Source: Paenibacillus sp. JZ16 (GTDB lineage Bacteria; Bacillota; Bacilli; Paenibacillales; Paenibacillaceae). From it: DNA of 64,000 bases. Below are positions 36,246 to 44,293 of the stretch, piece by piece. The stretch is taken from positions 5,522,001 through 5,586,000 of the forward strand of contig NZ_CP017659.1 of assembly GCF_015326965.1 (NCBI RefSeq), written 5' to 3'. The translations under genes were made by a program, and so were the position numbers. The notes below the pieces were generated by a model. The model was given only the letters and a program-made list of their open reading frames with translations. It was not told where the DNA came from and did no database searches. Every line of letters begins with the position of its first letter. Within the stretch, counting starts at the first letter, position 1.

Positions 36246-36285
36246 GCCCATGCAGTCTGAAATAAGACTGCATGGGCTCTTTTTT
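36246..36285 (+). terminator. Orphan terminator, first copy of a repeated hairpin
   Basis: Perfect 13-bp stem GCCCATGCAGTCT / AGACTGCATGGGC with a CTCTTTTTT tail. No gene ends before it. Related hairpins occur after the secreted-domain gene (degenerate, about 37190-37232) and after the BlaR-like gene (39697), so it marks the left edge of a duplicated cassette. Confidence 0.8.
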
Positions 36286-36328
36286 CTGTATTCAACCAAA
36301 CCCCAAAAATTTTTCTGCACAAACCGTG

Positions 36329-36378
36329 TTGACATAATTGAACTACAGTTGTAGTATTGATTTGCAACTACATCTGTA
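36329..36378 (+). promoter_or_regulatory. Promoter with two BlaI/MecI-type operators (gene at 36418)
   Basis: TTGACA (36329-36334), 17 bases, TAGTAT (36352-36357). Operators of the TACA-N2-TGTA form: TACAGTTGTA (36344-36353) in the spacer and TACATCTGTA (36369-36378) just after the start point, 25 bases apart. Confidence 0.85.
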
Positions 36379-36417
36379 GTTTGTGGATAAAAATTAATAG
36401 GAGAGGAGTATTACCAA

Positions 36418-37158
36418 ATGAAAGCAGCAACGAAAGTAGCAATCGCGACACTAAGCAGCATTTTATTAATGGGTTCTTCCGTAAACCTCGCGGCGAAGGC
36501 GCAATCCTACGAAAAAGCCCCAAAAGCTACTGTCAAGAAAGCAGCCGAAACAGCCAAGTCTATCTCTGCAGAGGAAAAAAGGCTTATCGAGGATGAGATC
36601 CAGAGAGTGAAGGAGTTGACCCAAGAGTCGGGTGATATGTACGTTCTGTATCATAAGTACCCAAAATTAAATAGCGGATTTGATATTAGCTTTTGGGGAG
36701 GGATACATGAATTCACTTCATACGAGGACTACTTGAAAAAAGCCTCAACTCTGAAGGGGTCCATCTTGAAGCAGCCTGCCAACCTGCCAAAGGGATACAA
36801 GTTTTTATCAGCGGTCATTGAAGGTCCGACCGAAGGAAAGTTCGTTGATGAGGTAAGGGCCGAAGGCAAGAAGAGCGGAAAGCCCATCTATGTGAAAAAG
36901 ATCGATTGGAAAGAGGCGGCAAGCATCCGTCTTAAATATGCGAGCGGAAAAGACACGCTGGGCTTTTCCAAGTATGCGGCAGACTCGGAGGGAAGCAAGA
37001 AGAAAGGTTTCTTTAATGATAAGCTGCCGGCGCATGTCTTTCCAAAATACGTTTTTTGGAATGATGGCGGCAAATTCGAATACAGCATTTCAACCTCCTC
37101 TTTGGATATGTCCAGAAAACAGAAGGTCGAGATTTTGAAAGCAGCGGTGAAAAAATAA
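36418..37158 (+). CDS. Secreted paralogue of the adjacent BlaR-like sensor domain
   Basis: 246 residues with a signal peptide (about 1-27, ending AAKAQS) and no membrane anchor or lipobox, so it should be free outside the membrane. From residue about 48 it is nearly the same as the C-terminal 200 residues of the BlaR-like protein at 37797: both contain SGDMYVLYHKY (or its close form), LNSGFD, YEDYLKKASTL/YEDYLIRASTL, PANLP, EGPTE and VRAEGKKSGKPIY. By eye identity is about two thirds. I do not recognise a described family with certainty; a DUF4367-like relation is possible. Paired BlaI operators in its promoter put it in the same regulon as blaI-blaR. It may be a decoy, ligand carrier or effector of the sensor. 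Confidence 0.8.
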   Translation: MKAATKVAIATLSSILLMGSSVNLAAKAQSYEKAPKATVKKAAETAKSISAEEKRLIEDEIQRVKELTQESGDMYVLYHKYPKLNSGFDISFWGGIHEFTSYEDYLKKASTLKGSILKQPANLPKGYKFLSAVIEGPTEGKFVDEVRAEGKKSGKPIYVKKIDWKEAASIRLKYASGKDTLGFSKYAADSEGSKKKGFFNDKLPAHVFPKYVFWNDGGKFEYSISTSSLDMSRKQKVEILKAAVKK

Positions 37159-37306
37159 CATTTGCGTCAGCTTCAGGACTTGCGGACAGGCCCATACAGC
37201 TCTGGAAAACAGGATGGCATGAGTTCTTTTGCAGATCAACATTCCCACAAGCGGTACAAGTATACTGCATGTAACTAAACCGAGAAAATTTTCTTCACCA
37301 AACATG

Positions 37307-37354
37307 TTGACATTATCAAACTACAATCGTAGCATTAACATAACTACATATGTA
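37307..37354 (+). promoter_or_regulatory. Promoter with two BlaI/MecI-type operators (blaI-blaR operon)
   Basis: TTGACA (37307-37312), 17 bases, TAGCAT (37330-37335). Operators TACAATCGTA (37322-37331, one half imperfect) and TACATATGTA (37345-37354). The layout copies the promoter at 36329. Confidence 0.85.
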
Positions 37355-37386
37355 GTTTTATTGAATTGACATTGGAGGTTTCATGC

Positions 37387-37797
37387 ATGAATCAAATACC
37401 ACCGATTACGGATGCAGAGCTGGAAATTATGCGCGTATTGTGGGCTAATCCGGACTGTCCTTCCAGCGAGGTCGTAAAGAAAATGACGGATCTGATGGGG
37501 TGGAGCCCCAATACAACTCGGACGCTCCTCAGTCGTCTGGTGCAGAAGGAAGCAGCGGGTGCGAAACTGGAAAAGGGTTCAAAGCGCACCCAACTATTTT
37601 ATCCGATCATCAGCGAGCAGGAGTATCTGCAGTCTGAAACCAAATCCTTCATGAAAAAACTTTATGGGGGAGCTTTAAAGCCGATGCTGGCCAACTTTTT
37701 GCAGGATAAAAAACTGAATGCGCAAGAAATCGAGGATCTGAAGGCTTTGTTTGACGAGAACAGCAGCGACGGGGAAACAGAAAAGAGAGAGCCCTGA
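37387..37797 (+). CDS. BlaI/MecI/CopY-family repressor
   Basis: 136 residues from ATG 37387, after TTGGAGG. The winged helix reads ITDAELEIMRVLWANPDCPSSEVVKKM and SPNTTRTLLSRLVQKEAAG; the C-terminal dimerisation part contains FMKKLYGGALKPMLANFLQDKKLNAQEIEDLKALFD, where BlaI proteins carry the cleavage site. It should repress itself, the BlaR-like gene and the secreted paralogue through the TACA-N2-TGTA boxes, and be inactivated after signalling by the M56 protease. The stop overlaps the next ATG by one base. Confidence 0.93.
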   Translation: MNQIPPITDAELEIMRVLWANPDCPSSEVVKKMTDLMGWSPNTTRTLLSRLVQKEAAGAKLEKGSKRTQLFYPIISEQEYLQSETKSFMKKLYGGALKPMLANFLQDKKLNAQEIEDLKALFDENSSDGETEKREP

Positions 37798-39668
37798 TGA
37801 GTCATACATTGCATGAAAATTTATTGTTGTTTTTCGGCTGGGTCATTCGCGGATCGTTCATGGCCGGCATCATGATCGTCCTTGTCCTGATGCTGCAATT
37901 TCTACTAAAAAACAAGATTGAAGCCAGATGGAGATACTGGCTTTGGTTTCCTGTGGCCATTCGCTTGCTGCTTCCTTGGGCACCGGAATCCTCGCTTAGC
38001 CTATACAATGTTTTGTCTCTGGAGGCCATAGTGCCCGGCATTCATCAACAAACCCAAGTTTCACCGCTTTGGAAGGAAACGGGGAGAATAAGCGCGGCCA
38101 TTCATGTTGAGCGCTCTATACACCCGGAGGCAAGCGGAACTTCGGAAGTACCTGCTCCATCCCTTGAATCGGGACCCGTGCAGGACAGCGGTCATTGGTG
38201 GAATGGGTTCAAGCAGATAGGCTTCACCAATATACTGATGTCGGTTTGGCTTGCGGGTGTGCTGCTTCTTGCCGTCAAAACGGTATACGACCAGCTTCGA
38301 TTGAAACAAGCCCTGCGCACGGGCCGAAAAATAGATACGCCTTTTCTATTGGCCGTGTTTCACGAGACGAAACAGCAATTAGGCGTGAAGCAAACCGTGC
38401 AGTTTGTAGCCAGCGAGCGAATTCCTGGACCTGCCGTGGTCGGTTTTAACAAACCGGCGATCGTCATTTCGCCCAGTCTGCTCATCACGCTGCAAAAGGA
38501 TCAACTTCAATACATTCTGGCGCATGAGTTCGCACATATTCAGCGGCGGGACGTCGCAGTGAACTGGTTAATGCATATCATCCTGATCATCCATTGGTTT
38601 AATCCGTTATTATGGCTAGCCGTACATAAAGCGAGACAAGACCAGGAGATGGCTTGCGATGCATGCGCCTTGAATCGGATGAGCCCGCAGCAAAACAATG
38701 CATACGGACAAACGATCATCCATGTGCTGGACCATTTTTCAGGAAACCAACGTCAGCCGGGACTTGCCGGCCTGTCCGCCACGCATAAACAAATGAAAAG
38801 GAGACTTACGATGATTAAACATTTTCACAAAAAATCTTATCGCCTGTCCATTCTGGGGATGGGGATGATTCTCGCGCTAGGCAGCGTGACATTGGTTAAT
38901 GCTAAGGAAAGCGATGCAGGGAACGTAACGTCAAAGGCTTCCGTGCAGTCAGAACAGGATGGAGCTGTTGTCAATAACGTGCCGGATATTATCTATCCCA
39001 AGGGGGATATTGACCGCGAGCTTTACAAAAAAGAGCTGGAAAAGGCCGAAAAAAAAGCAGAAGCAGCAGCCAAGGCTCTAACTCCAGAGGATAAGAAGTA
39101 TATCGAAGCTGAGACCAATAGAGTGAAGAAGCTAAGCGAAGAGACAGGTGATATGTATGTTCTGTATCATAAATATAAGGATCTTAACAGCGGATTCGAC
39201 CTAAGTTATTGGGGAGGTATAGAAAAATTCACTGCTTACGAGGACTACTTGATTAGAGCTTCCACGCTGGAGGGTTCTATTCTGAAGCGGCCTGCCAACT
39301 TGCCGGAGGGATTTAAGTTTTCCAAAGCGAGAATTGAAGGTCCAACCGAAAGAAAGTTCCTTGATGAAGTAAGGGCCGAAGGCAAGGAGAGCGGAAAACC
39401 CATCTACGCGAAAAAGATAGACTGGAAAGAGGCGGCAACCATTCGTCTTGAATATACGAACGGGAAAGATACGCTGGCCATTTCAAAATTTATGTTGGAC
39501 TCAGAGGGAAGTAAGAAGAAAGGTTTCTTTGAGGATGACTTCCCGGCGCATGTCTATCCAAAATACGTGTTTTGGCATGAAGGCGGCTTTGAATACAGCA
39601 TTTCAACCACATGGGATATGTCCAAGGAACAGAAGATCGATATTCTGAAAGCAGCGGTGCAGAAATAG
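37797..39668 (+). CDS. BlaR1-like M56 metalloprotease with a non-penicillin-binding sensor domain
   Basis: 623 residues. The N-terminal part has four membrane helices and the M56 gluzincin site: HEFAH at residues 243-247 and the third-ligand region QDQEMACDACALNRM. After a last helix (about residues 345-365, LSILGMGMILALGSVTLVN) there is an extracellular region of about 250 residues. In BlaR1/MecR1 this part is a class D beta-lactamase-like domain with SxxK and KTG motifs. Here neither is seen; instead, after a Lys/Glu/Ala-rich helix (ELEKAEKKAEAAAKALTPED), it holds the domain also encoded alone at 36418. Signalling logic (ligand outside, protease inside, BlaI cleaved) is probably kept, but the ligand is unknown and need not be a beta-lactam. 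Confidence 0.9.
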   Translation: MSHTLHENLLLFFGWVIRGSFMAGIMIVLVLMLQFLLKNKIEARWRYWLWFPVAIRLLLPWAPESSLSLYNVLSLEAIVPGIHQQTQVSPLWKETGRISAAIHVERSIHPEASGTSEVPAPSLESGPVQDSGHWWNGFKQIGFTNILMSVWLAGVLLLAVKTVYDQLRLKQALRTGRKIDTPFLLAVFHETKQQLGVKQTVQFVASERIPGPAVVGFNKPAIVISPSLLITLQKDQLQYILAHEFAHIQRRDVAVNWLMHIILIIHWFNPLLWLAVHKARQDQEMACDACALNRMSPQQNNAYGQTIIHVLDHFSGNQRQPGLAGLSATHKQMKRRLTMIKHFHKKSYRLSILGMGMILALGSVTLVNAKESDAGNVTSKASVQSEQDGAVVNNVPDIIYPKGDIDRELYKKELEKAEKKAEAAAKALTPEDKKYIEAETNRVKKLSEETGDMYVLYHKYKDLNSGFDLSYWGGIEKFTAYEDYLIRASTLEGSILKRPANLPEGFKFSKARIEGPTERKFLDEVRAEGKESGKPIYAKKIDWKEAATIRLEYTNGKDTLAISKFMLDSEGSKKKGFFEDDFPAHVYPKYVFWHEGGFEYSISTTWDMSKEQKIDILKAAVQK

Positions 39669-39696
39669 TGTTTTGAGCAAGCTTTGGTCTTGGGTA

Positions 39697-39737
39697 AGCC
39701 CGTGCAGTCCTGGAAGTAGGATTGCATGGGCTCTTTT
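39697..39737 (+). terminator. Terminator of the blaI-blaR operon, copy of the hairpin at 36246
   Basis: 15-bp stem AGCCCGTGCAGTCCT / AGGATTGCATGGGCT (two G-U pairs) followed by CTTTTG. Confidence 0.8.
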
Positions 39738-39920: not shown

Positions 39921-41240
39921 GTTACGGCCTGGCCGTAACGGACCTCAGATCCGCTATTTTGGCAATCGGCACGGTATTGCAGGAGTTACCGGACACAGAG
40001 CCCGATAAGTTGCCGATCATGACTTGGTCAGTCCTTAGGCCCAGCAGTATCGGACCTCAGATCCGCTATTTTGGCTATTGGCACAGTATTGCAAGATTTA
40101 TCGGACACACGATCCGTTAAGTAGCGGATAATCGGCAAAATGAGGACCTAATTCGGTGAAAAACGGATCTGTGGTCCGTTCGTGTTAAAAAAAGGGTGCC
40201 TTTGGACAAAATAAGGTCCGCTGAGTCCGCTAAAATTGCAAGTGACTAGTCAGTGCCCGTATGGACTACCCTCGAACGTAAGTACGACGCTCGAACGTAA
40301 GTACGACACTCGAAGTAAGTATGACGCTCTTGGACCTCAAATCCGCTATTTTCGCTATCGGCACGGTATTGCAGGAGTTACCGGACACAGAGCCCGATAA
40401 GTGCCGATCAGTGACTTGGTCAGTCCTTAGGCCCAGCAGTATCGGACCTCAGATCCGCTAATTGGCTATTGGCACAGTATTGCAAGATTTATCGGACACA
40501 GGTTCCGTTAAGTAGCGGATAATCCGTAAAATGATGACCTTATTTGGTGAATAACGGATCTGTGGTCCGTTCGTGTTAAAGAAAGGGTGCTTTTAGTTAA
40601 AATAAGGTCCGCTGAGTCCGCTAAAATTGCAAGTGACTAGTCAGTGTCCGTATGAACTACGCTCGAAAGTATGAACAACGCTCAAATTTATGGCACTCTC
40701 CGGACCTCAGATCCGCTATTTTCGCAATACGCTCGCTTTTGATGGGGTCATCGGACACAGGTTCCGTTAAGTAGCGGATAATCCGTAAAATGATGACCTT
40801 ATTTGGTGAATAACGGATCTGTGGTCCGTTCGTGTTAAAAAAAGGGTGCTTTTGGACAAAATAAGGTCCGCTGAGTCCGCTAAAATTGCAAGTGACTAGT
40901 CAGTGTCCGTATGAACTACGCTCGAACGTGAGTACGACGCTCGAACGTAAGTACGACACTCGAAGTAAGTATGACGCTCTTGGACCTCAGATCCGCTATT
41001 TTCGCAATATGCTCGCTTTTGAGGGGGTTATCGGACACAGGTTCCGTTAAGTAGCGGATAATCCGTAAAATGATGACCATATTTGGTGAATAACGGATCT
41101 GTAGTCCGTTCGTGTTAAAAAAAGGGTGCTTTTGGTCAAAATAAGGTCCGCTGAGTCCGCTAAAATTGCAAGTGACTAGGCAGTGCCAGTATGAACTACG
41201 CTCGAACTTATGTACGACGCTAGAAGGTAAATACAACACT
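39921..41240. repeat. Array of four to five diverged copies of a structured intergenic element
   Basis: The sequence CGGACCTCAGATCCGCTATT (or with one change) recurs near 39939, 40051, 40332, 40441, 40701 and 40982. CGGATCTGTGGTCCG, its inverted complement with one mismatch, recurs at 40164, 40555, 40814 and 41094 (last copy with one change). AAGGTCCGCTGAGTCCGC and GCAAGTGACTAG follow each time. Unit length varies between about 260 and 390 bases because some copies lack an internal block (GGTATTGCAGGAGTTACCGG). Between units are short runs of CTCGAACGTAAGTACGACG. A palindrome GTTACGGCCTGGCCGTAAC (39921-39939) opens the array. No frame with a ribosome site spans it. It looks like repeated structured DNA or RNA elements. 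Confidence 0.8.
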
Positions 41241-41380
41241 CAGATGTATGGCACTCAAATGTATCACAAAGCTCAATGCATGACAGTGCTCAATGTAAGA
41301 CAAAGCTCAATGTATGACAGTGCTCAATGTAAGATAAAGCTCAAATGTATGACAAAGCTGAAATGTATGACAGTGCTCGA
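41232..41380. repeat. Short tandem repeats of about 17 bases
   Basis: Alternating AAAGCTCAATGTATGAC and AGTGCTCAATGTAAGAC-like words, about eight in a row, imperfect. They directly continue the array to the left. Not coding. Confidence 0.7.
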
Positions 41381-41491: not shown

Positions 41492-42031
41492 TTATGCCGT
41501 TTGTTTTTTGAAAGGTGTGTGCGTGGTGCCATCGCCTTTAGTTGTTCTGTGCGTCATTTTGTTCCACAGGCCGCGGAGGTAAGGGAGAACCCAATAATCG
41601 AGGCCGATTTTACCGGCGTTGGCAGCAGCGACGATGATCAGCACTTCAAGCAGTAACATCTGGGCGTTGGTGCTCACCGTACCCGAGAAGAGGAATGCGG
41701 CGTTCATCACAAGTCCCATCAGAGCGGCGAAGGTAGTGAAGGTACCGAGGATCAGCCCGACCCCTACGAGGAACTCACCGAGCGGGATGATAAAGTTGAA
41801 GAGCTTCACTCCCGGCAGTGCCGCATGCTCCAGAAACGCCGCCCACCAGCCTTGGACTGCGGGGTGATCGCCGGCTGCTTTGGCGATCGCGCCTTGCAGG
41901 AAGCCGCCTGCTTCAAATCGGCCCGTCAATTTACCCCAACCTGCTGTCATCCACTCATAACCGATGTAGACCCGGATGAAGGTCAGCAGCCACATTGCCA
42001 ATTTGTTTGTTCTCAGCCAGTTGTTAAACAT
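41492..42031 (-). CDS. DoxX-family membrane protein, copy 1
   Basis: 179 residues with four membrane helices. Typical DoxX features are the first helix LLTFIRVYIGYEWMTAGWGKLTG, the loop PAVQGWWAAFLEHAALPGVKLFNFIIPLGEFLVGVGLILG and a GTFTTFAALMGLVMNAAFLFSG segment. The family includes the thiosulfate:quinone oxidoreductase subunit DoxD and proteins linked to quinone and thiol stress; the exact role here is unknown. ATG 42031 follows AAGGAG at 8 bases. It is almost the same as copy 3 at 44511 and clearly related to copy 2 at 43726. Three GTGA-N6-TCAC-like boxes precede it. Confidence 0.9.
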   Translation of the reverse strand: MFNNWLRTNKLAMWLLTFIRVYIGYEWMTAGWGKLTGRFEAGGFLQGAIAKAAGDHPAVQGWWAAFLEHAALPGVKLFNFIIPLGEFLVGVGLILGTFTTFAALMGLVMNAAFLFSGTVSTNAQMLLLEVLIIVAAANAGKIGLDYWVLPYLRGLWNKMTHRTTKGDGTTHTPFKKQTA

Positions 42032-42160
42032 ATAAACCACTCCTTAAAAGTATGATTTCTTTTTTATGAAAGCTTCCTTGCCAATTGTCGGATGATGTGC
42101 TGAAGTTCTATGATGTTGTTCTTTAGGAAGATGATCATCTCTTTCATGTCTTTATTATAA

Positions 42161-42334: not shown

Positions 42335-43260
42335 CTAGGATATGTGGTGGTAAAGCATGGTGTGTGGAGGATTGTGGGAGTAAGCAAATGGGTAGTAAGC
42401 AGGTAATTAGTAAGTATGTGTTGCTAAATCATGTTGTCTGGAGTATTGCTGGAATAAGCAAATGGGCAGTAAGCAGGTAATTAGTAAGTAATGTGTTGGT
42501 AAGCATGTTGTCTGGAGTTTTGCGGAAGTAGGCAAATGGGCAGTAAGCGAGTAATTAGTAAGTAATGTGTTGGTAAGCATGGTGTCTGGAGTTTTGCGGA
42601 AGTAGGCAAATGGGCAGTAAGCGAGTAATTAGTAAGTAATGTGTTGGTAAGCATGGTGTCAGAAGTATTGTGGGAGTAGGTTAAATGGGCAGTAAGCAGG
42701 TAATTAGTAAGTAATGTGGTGGTAAAGCATGGTGTCTGGAGTATTGCAGTAGTAGGCAAATGGGTAGTAAGCAAGTAATTAGTTAGTAAGTAATGTGGCG
42801 GTAAAGCATGGGGTCTGGAGTATTGCAGTAGTAGGCAAATGGGCAGTAAGCAGGTAGTTAGTAAGTAATGTGGTGGTAAGCATGTTGTCTGGAGTATTGC
42901 GGGAGTAAGCAAATGGGTAGTAAGCAGGTAATTAGTAAGTAATGTGGTGGTAAAGCATGGTGTCTGGAGTTTTGCGGGAGTAAGCAAGTGGGTAGTAAGC
43001 AGGTAATTAGTAAGTAATGTGGTGGTAAGCATGGTGCCTGGAGGATTGTGGGAGTAAGCAAATGGGTAGTAAGCGCGTAATTAGTAAGTAATGTGGTGGT
43101 AAGCATGTTGTCTGGAGGATTGCAGGAGTAGGCAAATGGGCAGTAAGCGAGTAATTAGTAAGTAATGTGGTGTTAAGCATGGTGTCAGAAGTATTGTGGG
43201 AGTAGGTTAAATGGGAGTAAGCAGGTAATTAGTAAGTAATATGCTGTAAGAATATTCTGT
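42335..43260. repeat. Minisatellite: about 12 tandem units of 74-75 bp
   Basis: The anchor word GTAATTAGTAAG (one copy GTAGTTAGTAAG) starts at 42403, 42477, 42551, 42625, 42700, 42775, 42854, 42928, 43003, 43077, 43151 and 43224. Steps are 73-75 bases, once 79. Each unit also has GGTAAGCATGGTGTCTGGAG, TTGCGGGAGTAAGCAAATGG and GGTAGTAAGCAGG words. Because 74 is not a multiple of three the reading frame shifts in every unit, so it is not a repeat protein. There are no unique spacers, so it is not CRISPR. 74 bp is close to seven helical turns. Confidence 0.92.
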
Positions 43261-43725: not shown

Positions 43726-44250
43726 TCAGACCGCCTGATTCTGCAGAGAGGAAGGGTCACTGCTGATTTTTGCTTTGCGCGTGAATTTATCTTGGAGGTA
43801 GGGCATGAGCCAGCGGTCGATCCCGATCTTTCCGCTGTTGGCGGCCGAGAGGATGATCAGGAATTCGAGCAGCAGGAGCTGACCGTTGATGCTGATGGCA
43901 CCAGAAAAGAGATACGCAGCGTTCATCACGAGCCCCATCAGCGCAGCGAACACAGTGAATGTGCCGAGAATGAGGCCAAGTCCGACGAGGAATTCGCCCA
44001 GTGGAACGATGACGTTGAACCATTTGACGCCGGGCAGCGCGGCATGCTTCAGGAATACGGCCCACCAATCCTGAACCGCAGGGTGCTCACCCGTGGATTT
44101 GGCGATGGCCCCTTGCATAAATCCGGTCGCATCGAAGCCTCCCGTTAGCTTGCCCCAGCCTGCCGTCAGCCACTTATACCCAACGTACACCCGAATGACC
44201 GTCAGCAGCCACATTGCGATTTTGCTTGATTGCAACCATTGAATAAACAT
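43726..44250 (-). CDS. DoxX-family membrane protein, copy 2
   Basis: 174 residues, four membrane helices, same motifs as copies 1 and 3 (LLTVIRVYVGYKWLTAGWGKLTGG; LPGVKWFNVIVPLGEFLVGLGLILG) but clearly more diverged, with a shorter basic C-terminal tail (LQDKFTRKAKISSDP). ATG 44250 follows GGAGGAG. Its upstream region lacks the GTGA-N6-TCAC boxes of the other two copies and instead has a 15-bp inverted repeat (44294-44400). This suggests a different control signal for the same type of protein. Confidence 0.9.
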   Translation of the reverse strand: MFIQWLQSSKIAMWLLTVIRVYVGYKWLTAGWGKLTGGFDATGFMQGAIAKSTGEHPAVQDWWAVFLKHAALPGVKWFNVIVPLGEFLVGLGLILGTFTVFAALMGLVMNAAYLFSGAISINGQLLLLEFLIILSAANSGKIGIDRWLMPYLQDKFTRKAKISSDPSSLQNQAV

Positions 44251-44293
44251 CAGCACCACTCCTCCAATGAATAATCATTCTCTTTTTTGTTTT

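What the first reader, a model, noticed from the sequence alone, without database searches (positions are those of the whole stretch)
36246..39737. BlaI/BlaR1-like system whose penicillin sensor is replaced by a domain also encoded as a free secreted protein
The M56 protein (37797-39668) keeps HEFAH and the membrane part of BlaR1, but its extracellular part lacks the SxxK and KTG motifs. Instead it has a roughly 200-residue domain about two-thirds identical by eye to the secreted protein at 36418-37158. A sensor and a soluble twin under one repressor suggests a new ligand-sensing circuit: the free copy could titrate, carry or amplify the signal. M56/BlaI signalling logic is established for beta-lactam sensing; the rest is inference.
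Basis: partly seen in the sequence, partly recalled or inferred. Interest (0 to 1): 0.8.

Follow-up and report, generated by a model that had tools for sequence, protein, structure and literature searches.

The report
Penicillin-sensor relative with secreted twin domain
A soil bacterium seems to have reused the machinery that normally detects penicillin to sense something else, and it also secretes a loose copy of the new sensor part under the same switch, an arrangement that recurs with unrelated sensor parts and points to an undescribed kind of envelope-sensing circuit.

Summary
A BlaI repressor (37390-37797) and an M56/BlaR1-type receptor (37797-39668) share a locus with a secreted protein (36418-37158) 69% identical to the receptor's ectodomain. 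Both promoters carry BlaI-type operators; the exact 12-bp palindrome occurs at three places in the 7.4 Mb genome, all here. The pairing is conserved: 20 of 20 receptors of this type, in 16 of 100 genus genomes, have a free twin; one unpaired receptor was found later. The ectodomain is no penicillin binder. Its predicted fold matches the C-terminal domain of RseB/MucB, which in Gram-negatives docks a membrane signalling protein. In five of nine pairs examined, gene conversion has made that core more alike than the rest. The free/fused design also appears with two unrelated ectodomains on M56 and in four ECF sigma operons. Unexpectedly, the receptor gene has a conserved internal ribosome-binding site and ATG just before its last membrane helix, seen in other Bacillota M56 genes above a synonymous-codon null. 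Ligand and direction of feedback are inferred; nothing was tested in cells.

The parts
36329..36357 (+). promoter-like site of the free-twin gene: TTGACA, 17 bp, TAGTAT
   Evidence: pattern match
36342..36355 (.). BlaI-type operator 1 of the free-twin promoter, ACTACAGTTGTAGT
36367..36380 (.). BlaI-type operator 2 of the free-twin promoter, ACTACATCTGTAGT
36418..37158 (+). free twin: secreted 246-aa protein; N-terminal hydrophobic signal-like segment, two helices, then RseB/MucB C-terminal-domain-like core
   Evidence: signal peptide judged by eye
36727..37155 (+). core of the free twin matched to the RseB/MucB C-terminal domain (model residues 104-246)
37307..37335 (+). promoter-like site of blaI-M56: TTGACA, 17 bp, TAGCAT
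37320..37333 (.). BlaI-type operator with one mismatch in the core (CTACAATCGTAG, 37321-37332)
37343..37356 (.). BlaI-type operator ACTACATATGTAGT (core 37344-37355)
37390..37797 (+). BlaI/MecI-type repressor
   Evidence: Pfam Penicillinase_R 9.4e-29; PDB MecI/BlaI matches
37693..37698 (+). codons N102-F103, at the BlaI Asn101-Phe102 cleavage position
   Evidence: alignment with MecI/BlaI; codons checked; cleavage site from PMC9834060
37797..39668 (+). M56/BlaR1-type receptor, 623 aa
38523..38537 (+). HEFAH zinc-protease motif, residues 243-247
   Evidence: alignment with BlaR1 8exs
38796..38804 (+). internal Shine-Dalgarno AAAAGGAGA (codons K334-R336)
38811..39668 (+). predicted nested in-frame product from ATG 339: TM4 as signal segment plus ectodomain
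   Evidence: inferred; not shown experimentally
38841..38903 (+). last membrane helix (TM4, by eye) ending VNA|K, a signal-peptidase-I-like site
   Evidence: V(T/S)LVNA-K in 29 of 33 M56 proteins; cleavage inferred
39021..39665 (+). ectodomain homologous to the free twin (69% identity)

Best explanation
This is an envelope-sensing BlaI/M56 circuit whose penicillin sensor has been replaced by an RseB/MucB-C-terminal-like domain. At rest BlaI sits on the paired operators of both promoters. When the ectodomain meets its signal, the M56 protease cuts BlaI at Asn102-Phe103 and both promoters open. The output, apart from the circuit itself, is the secreted free twin, which has the same core and, since gene conversion repeatedly makes the cores alike, probably the same binding partner. 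The free twin then competes with the receptor for that ligand or partner and switches the system off again: a negative-feedback soluble co-receptor. Shown by sequence: genes, motifs, operators, pairing, homologous domains, gene conversion in several species. Predicted: the fold. Inferred: cleavage, ligand sharing, sign of feedback. The internal ribosome-binding site suggests that the receptor gene also makes a soluble copy of its own ectodomain.
For: Protease motif and BlaI cut-site residues kept. Operators at both promoters, exact palindrome at three places genome-wide, all here. In one search, 28 of 32 modules have an exact site upstream of the free gene. The free gene can lie up- or downstream of the receptor gene and then keeps its own operators (L080-L082). 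One genome has a further free copy with a double operator and no blaI or M56 in its 12.7-kb locus (L066). 20 of 20 fused receptors in the 100-genome genus survey are paired. In five of nine pairs the DNA identity of free and fused copies is clearly higher over the core than over the helical part. In arrays, receptors 3830 and 7495 (L054) and 4329 (L055) are closest to their own neighbours 6268, 10800 and 6764. The twin design repeats with two other ectodomain families and in four ECF operons looked at. Fold match to RseB/MucB, soluble modulators of a membrane signalling protein.
Confidence: 0.45

Rival explanations
1. RseB-like capping: the free twin does not need to share a ligand but docks on the receptor's own juxtamembrane helices or on its ectodomain and holds it off, and a signal releases it, as RseB/MucB do with RseA/MucA.
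For: Core fold matches the RseB/MucB C-terminal domain, the primary docking site for the MucA helix (PMC7400510, passages). The free twin has two helices before the core and the fused copy has the same stretch. Sigma, anti-sigma, free-twin operons have the gene order of rpoE-rseA-rseB (order as in an abstract listed, PMC4336711).
Against: Homogenisation of the core in both copies is not required by a one-way docking; no complex was modelled.
Confidence: 0.22
2. Effector model: the free twin is the working product that binds or neutralises a harmful agent (as beta-lactamase does in the bla system) and the receptor borrowed the same domain to detect it.
For: The free-twin promoter is one of only two with exact sites in the genome. 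The BlaR1 sensor itself is related to class D beta-lactamases (PMC9834060, passages). Arrays of diverged twins in L054 and L055 could be adaptation to several agents.
Against: No catalytic signature noticed; no agent known.
Confidence: 0.2
3. Carrier or amplifier: the free twin captures the ligand and presents it to the receptor, giving positive feedback.
For: Shared core and co-regulation fit equally well.
Against: Binding-protein partners are usually not near-copies of the receptor domain (recalled); repeated homogenisation of cores suggests the same surface, hence competition (inference).
Confidence: 0.1
4. A beta-lactam or cell-wall-antibiotic sensor in disguise.
For: BlaI/M56 chassis.
Against: No transpeptidase match while six controls match; SxxK not conserved; another fold ranks first.
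Confidence: 0.02
5. The twin is a leftover of gene duplication without a function.
For: P. alvei copies appear frame-broken (L078).
Against: Conserved pairing, operators and domain over many species and four genera.
Confidence: 0.01

Closest known systems
BlaI-BlaR1 / MecI-MecR1 (S. aureus, B. licheniformis)
   Same: Repressor with the N-F cut-site residues, paired TACA-NN-TGTA operators, M56 zinc protease with membrane helices and a C-terminal extracellular domain, a signal-peptidase-like site after the last helix
   Different: Sensor is not a penicillin-binding domain; the co-regulated gene is a near copy of the sensor rather than a beta-lactamase; internal ribosome-binding site before the last helix, not found in the six true BlaR1 genes examined (a small control)
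RseB/MucB with RseA/MucA (Gram-negative sigma-E pathway)
   Same: Predicted core fold of the C-terminal domain; soluble extracytoplasmic protein encoded with a membrane signalling protein
   Different: No lipid-binding N-terminal domain; no sequence match found; here the same domain is also fused to the receptor, and the chassis is BlaI/M56
DUF4367 (PF14285)
   Same: 20 of 44 members of the alignment hit it at E <= 1, best 6.2e-5; the probable anti-sigma factor of L111 is above the curated cut-off
   Different: Window copies stay below the cut-off (16.6 bits against 22.1 for the ectodomain, no hit for the free protein)
RsiV-sigma V lysozyme receptor (B. subtilis)
   Same: Gram-positive membrane receptor whose ectodomain binds an attacker and starts proteolysis (PMC4183432, abstract start and passages)
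   Different: Other named domains (DUF4163, DUF3298) and an ECF chassis; a secreted twin was not mentioned in the passages seen

Membership tests
BlaI/MecI repressor | Penicillinase_R domain | tested here: met
   9.4e-29, above cut-off; MecI/BlaI structures 2.9e-15 to 4.2e-13
BlaI/MecI repressor | Asn-Phe at the cleavage position | tested here: met
   N102-F103 aligns with the NF of MecI/BlaI; cleavage itself not testable
BlaI/MecI repressor | TACA-NN-TGTA operators at controlled promoters | tested here: met
M56 / BlaR1 protease | M56 domain with HExxH and downstream E, D, R | tested here: met
   alignment; H243, E244, H247, D252, E284 and R336 invariant in the 21 sequences
BlaR1 beta-lactam sensor | C-terminal transpeptidase / class D-like sensor with conserved SxxK and KTG | tested here: not met
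   no PF00905 hit while 6 of 6 controls hit; SxxK not conserved; below the blaR1_generic cut-off, 183.9 against 400, matching residues 19-364 only
DUF4367 | Pfam score above curated cut-off | tested here: not met
   window ectodomain 16.6 bits against 22.1; some relatives reach 6.2e-5
RseB/MucB | C-terminal-domain fold | tested here: met
RseB/MucB | LolA-like N-terminal lipid-binding domain | tested here: not met
   model residues 36-103 hold helices and three short strands only, 1-42 are below pLDDT 50
RseB/MucB | binds the extracytoplasmic helix of a membrane signalling partner | not testable with these tools
   no complex prediction offered
Twin (free plus fused) M56 module | free secreted homologue of the ectodomain in the same locus | tested here: met
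   window; 32 of 32 modules of this ectodomain; 3 of 42 other M56 proteins

The most novel reading that the evidence does not exclude
Many non-penicillin M56 receptors in Bacillota deliberately make a soluble copy of their own ectodomain from a conserved internal ribosome-binding site placed just before the last membrane helix, which then serves as signal peptide. The twin gene in this window is a duplicated, separately regulated version of that nested cistron. Receptor plus self-derived soluble decoy would then be a recurrent design, independent of which ectodomain is attached.
Probability: 0.4. Interest if true: 0.85.

Novelty: new variant of a known kind. Interest (0 to 1): 0.7.

Why it matters
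BlaR1 signalling is known from beta-lactam resistance, yet in the order sample scanned here only 6 of 42 M56 proteins carry a penicillin-binding domain; what the others sense is largely open. This finding gives a testable rule for some of them: look for a soluble copy of the ectodomain, from a twin gene or from an internal start. It also brings an RseB-like fold, known from Gram-negative envelope stress control, into Gram-positive BlaI and ECF circuits. A conserved internal start inside BlaR1-type genes would offer a second source of free sensor domain, which in staphylococcal BlaR1 is credited to signal peptidase (PMC9834060, passages).

Tried and rejected

First count of internal starts looked in a misplaced zone and is not used; one search repeats it in the right zone (8 of 42). 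Tandem rare Arg codons as a pause signal remain possible, but the link to a following ATG (16 of 22 against 1 of 13) speaks against it; related genes are not independent, so repeats the test on clustered genes. The absence of the site from six true BlaR1 genes is a small control: 0 of 6 against 8 of the other 36.

Full-length M56 structure prediction (alignment A3) had not finished and is not used.
Full report
1. What is there. The window lies at 5522001-5586000 of a 7.42 Mb single-contig genome. All 25 named loci found with the domain alignment are Paenibacillus, and the M56 protein is 98% identical to that of L060, P. lautus NBRC 15380, so the host is very probably a Paenibacillus (inference). 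The locus reads: secreted 246-aa protein (36418-37158), BlaI (37390-37797), M56 receptor (37797-39668). M56 scores 3.4e-59 and Penicillinase_R 9.4e-29. The receptor's stretch 39021-39665 is 69% identical to the free protein. BlaI keeps Asn-Phe where MecI/BlaI are aligned with NF, the site cut by BlaR1 (Asn101-Phe102, PMC9834060, passages). HExxH, the following E, D252 and R336 are invariant in the 21 sequences; the protease part aligns with BlaR1.

2. One regulon. CTACANNTGTAG, one mismatch allowed, matches four places in the window against 0.72 expected; the exact form occurs at three places in the whole genome, all in these two promoters. Both promoters have the same build, TTGACA-17-TAG(T/C)AT, with an operator over spacer and -10. 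In 100 genus genomes, 18 have a close pair of exact operators, at 21 places in all. By position, 17 of the 21 lie before a free-twin gene. The other four: G023, G061 and one site of G096 lie before blaI-M56 genes with another ectodomain, and one site of G007 lies before a different secreted gene.

3. Pairing is conserved. In the same 100 genomes, 35 have any relative of the domain at E <= 1e-5, and 16 have a receptor-fused copy, 20 fused genes in all. All 20 have a free copy on the same strand within about 3 kb. With the 12 the count is 32 of 32; P. alvei (L078) is included although both genes appear frame-broken. The 12 were found by the domain itself, so the genus survey is the fairer test. 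Exact operators lie before the free gene in 28 of 32 modules (missing: two modules of L054, one of L055, and L078). A search of 296 order genomes found relatives at E <= 1e-12 in 22 genomes and 5 of 48 genera, all in the same family. It added three fused genes not yet counted: two paired (L214; G448 by coordinates) and one, L211, with a double operator but no twin and no blaI nearby. Total 34 of 35. G400 of that search is the same locus as L063. Free genes without a local receptor also exist; the one in L056/L066 carries a double operator.

4. Not a penicillin sensor. No transpeptidase domain is found, while six true BlaR1 proteins from the same order all hit it. SILK and SKKK strings exist in the ectodomain but are not conserved. 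The domain is a diverged relative of DUF4367: 20 of 44 members match at E <= 1, best 6.2e-5, but the window copies fall below the curated cut-off.

6. Twins share their core. In a tree of 74 domains (42 free, 32 fused) the labels change 7 times against 24.3 for shuffled labels. Most free and fused copies form two parallel groups, but local free/fused copies group together in L053, L082, L077/L078 and L054 (7495 with 10800). DNA identity of free and fused copies in 20-codon blocks was examined in nine pairs. L051 and L052: 67-77% before residue 105, 92-97% over residues 125-224, 80-85% at the end. L053: 65-67% over 45-84, 92-98% over 125-184, lower after that. L050: 77-87% before 125, 92-100% after. 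L055 (6764/4329): 47-68% before 105, 80-95% from 125 on. L054 10800/7495 is 82-97% throughout. The window pair, L054 6268/3830 and L072 show no step. L051 and L052 are close relatives, so this may be fewer than five events. Gene conversion that favours the core suggests that the core must stay the same in both copies while the necks may differ (inference).

7. The design recurs. From the M56 hits, 40 loci were fetched. They hold 42 M56 proteins with an ectodomain over 80 residues; 6 of 42 carry a transpeptidase domain. Three of 42 have a same-locus free homologue of the ectodomain: L161 (82% over 313 aa, a second ectodomain family, also paired in L055 at 39%) and L143/L144 (an acidic repeat domain). 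In L143 operator-like sites precede the free gene; in L161 they precede blaI, with none found between the M56 gene and the free gene behind it; in L055 exact sites lie before both. In L143 the free protein's signal segment closely resembles the receptor's last helix (sequences). None of the six true BlaR1 loci has a twin at E <= 1e-4. Separately, in four operons (L059, L110, L111, L112) a sigma-70 region 2/4 protein is followed by a protein with a match, strong or weak, to the domain, probably the anti-sigma factor, and by one or two free copies; the one of L111 passes the DUF4367 cut-off.

8. An internal start. In the M56 gene AAAAGGAGA precedes ATG 339 by 6 bases, just upstream of the last membrane helix; ATG 339 would start a product in which that helix acts as signal segment. 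Eight codons (HKQMKRRL) show no synonymous difference among 21 receptors less than 93% identical to each other (one of them with the second ectodomain), the lowest such window of the gene, whose mean is 0.35. Three of the four single-codon columns among 72 invariant columns of four- or sixfold codons are R335, R336 and L337. Six deep paralogues with KKRL lack it. In a sample from order and phylum, Arg-Arg at this place is AGG AGA in 16 of 22 genes when ATG follows at the right distance and in 1 of 13 otherwise (Fisher p 3e-4); the background is 18 of 911 Arg-Arg pairs in other ORFs and 2 of 149 elsewhere in M56 ORFs. Along 77 M56 genes, strong site plus in-frame start is found in 12 of 77 in each of the two junction windows, in 0 or 1 gene in every window upstream, in 0-4% of genes in windows downstream, and in 104 of 4736 windows (2.2%) of other ORFs. 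Against synonymous shuffles: 26 of 77 observed, 5.1 expected, maximum 11 in 300; with genes under 60% identical 21 of 56 against 4.4; under 45%, 14 of 34 against 2.9, maximum 8. So two thirds of the M56 genes lack it. The six true BlaR1 genes lack it too, a small control. In S. aureus a free sensor domain is made by signal peptidase cutting after the last helix (PMC9834060, passages; PMC4183432, passages). Here V(T/S)LVNA-K follows the helix in 29 of 33 proteins, so cleavage there would release a soluble ectodomain from either product (inference).

9. Reading. The module is a BlaI/M56 circuit with an RseB-C-terminal-like sensor whose output is a soluble copy of that sensor. I favour negative feedback by competition for the same ligand or partner. 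RseB-like capping and an effector role are close rivals. The ligand is unknown.

10. Novelty. The chassis is known, the ectodomain and twin design are a new variant, and the internal start may be a new feature of part of the M56 family. The paper searches showed no description of either in what their listings gave; other literature was not searched.

Noticed in passing
window 42342-43240: Tandem array of a 74-bp unit, 12 copies, 88% matches, between two DoxX-family proteins at 41492-42040 and 43726-44259 (Pfam 4.5e-7 and 6.1e-8).
   Followed up: partly
window 40702-41241: Direct repeat of about 280 bp, 1.9 copies, 93% matches, downstream of the M56 gene.
   Followed up: no
L054 and L055: Arrays in two genomes with three and two fused receptors and several free copies; a Mutator-family transposase ORF in L054 (16006-17229) lies about where L055 keeps an M56 gene with the second ectodomain.
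   Followed up: partly
L055 14360-16438, L161, L103-L105: M56 receptors with a second ectodomain family of about 230-310 residues without a significant Pfam hit in the two free copies tested; free twin present in L055 and L161, not found in L103-L105.
   Followed up: partly
L143, L144: M56 receptors with an acidic repeat ectodomain (units of about 28 residues by eye) and a free repeat protein next door.
   Followed up: partly
L110, L111, L112, L059: Sigma-70 region 2/4 protein, probable anti-sigma factor with a DUF4367-like ectodomain and free copies in one operon, the gene order of rpoE-rseA-rseB.
   Followed up: partly
L211 6161-8041: Orphan M56 receptor with a double BlaI operator but no blaI or free twin nearby, so perhaps controlled in trans.
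   Followed up: no
L106-L108: Free copies of the domain in pairs next to a roughly 580-aa protein; the one of L108 matches DUF4179 and DUF5643.
   Followed up: no
L142-L181: Four of 42 M56 proteins of the order sample match Kelch-repeat families and three match DUF4825, so M56 carries several kinds of ectodomain.
   Followed up: no
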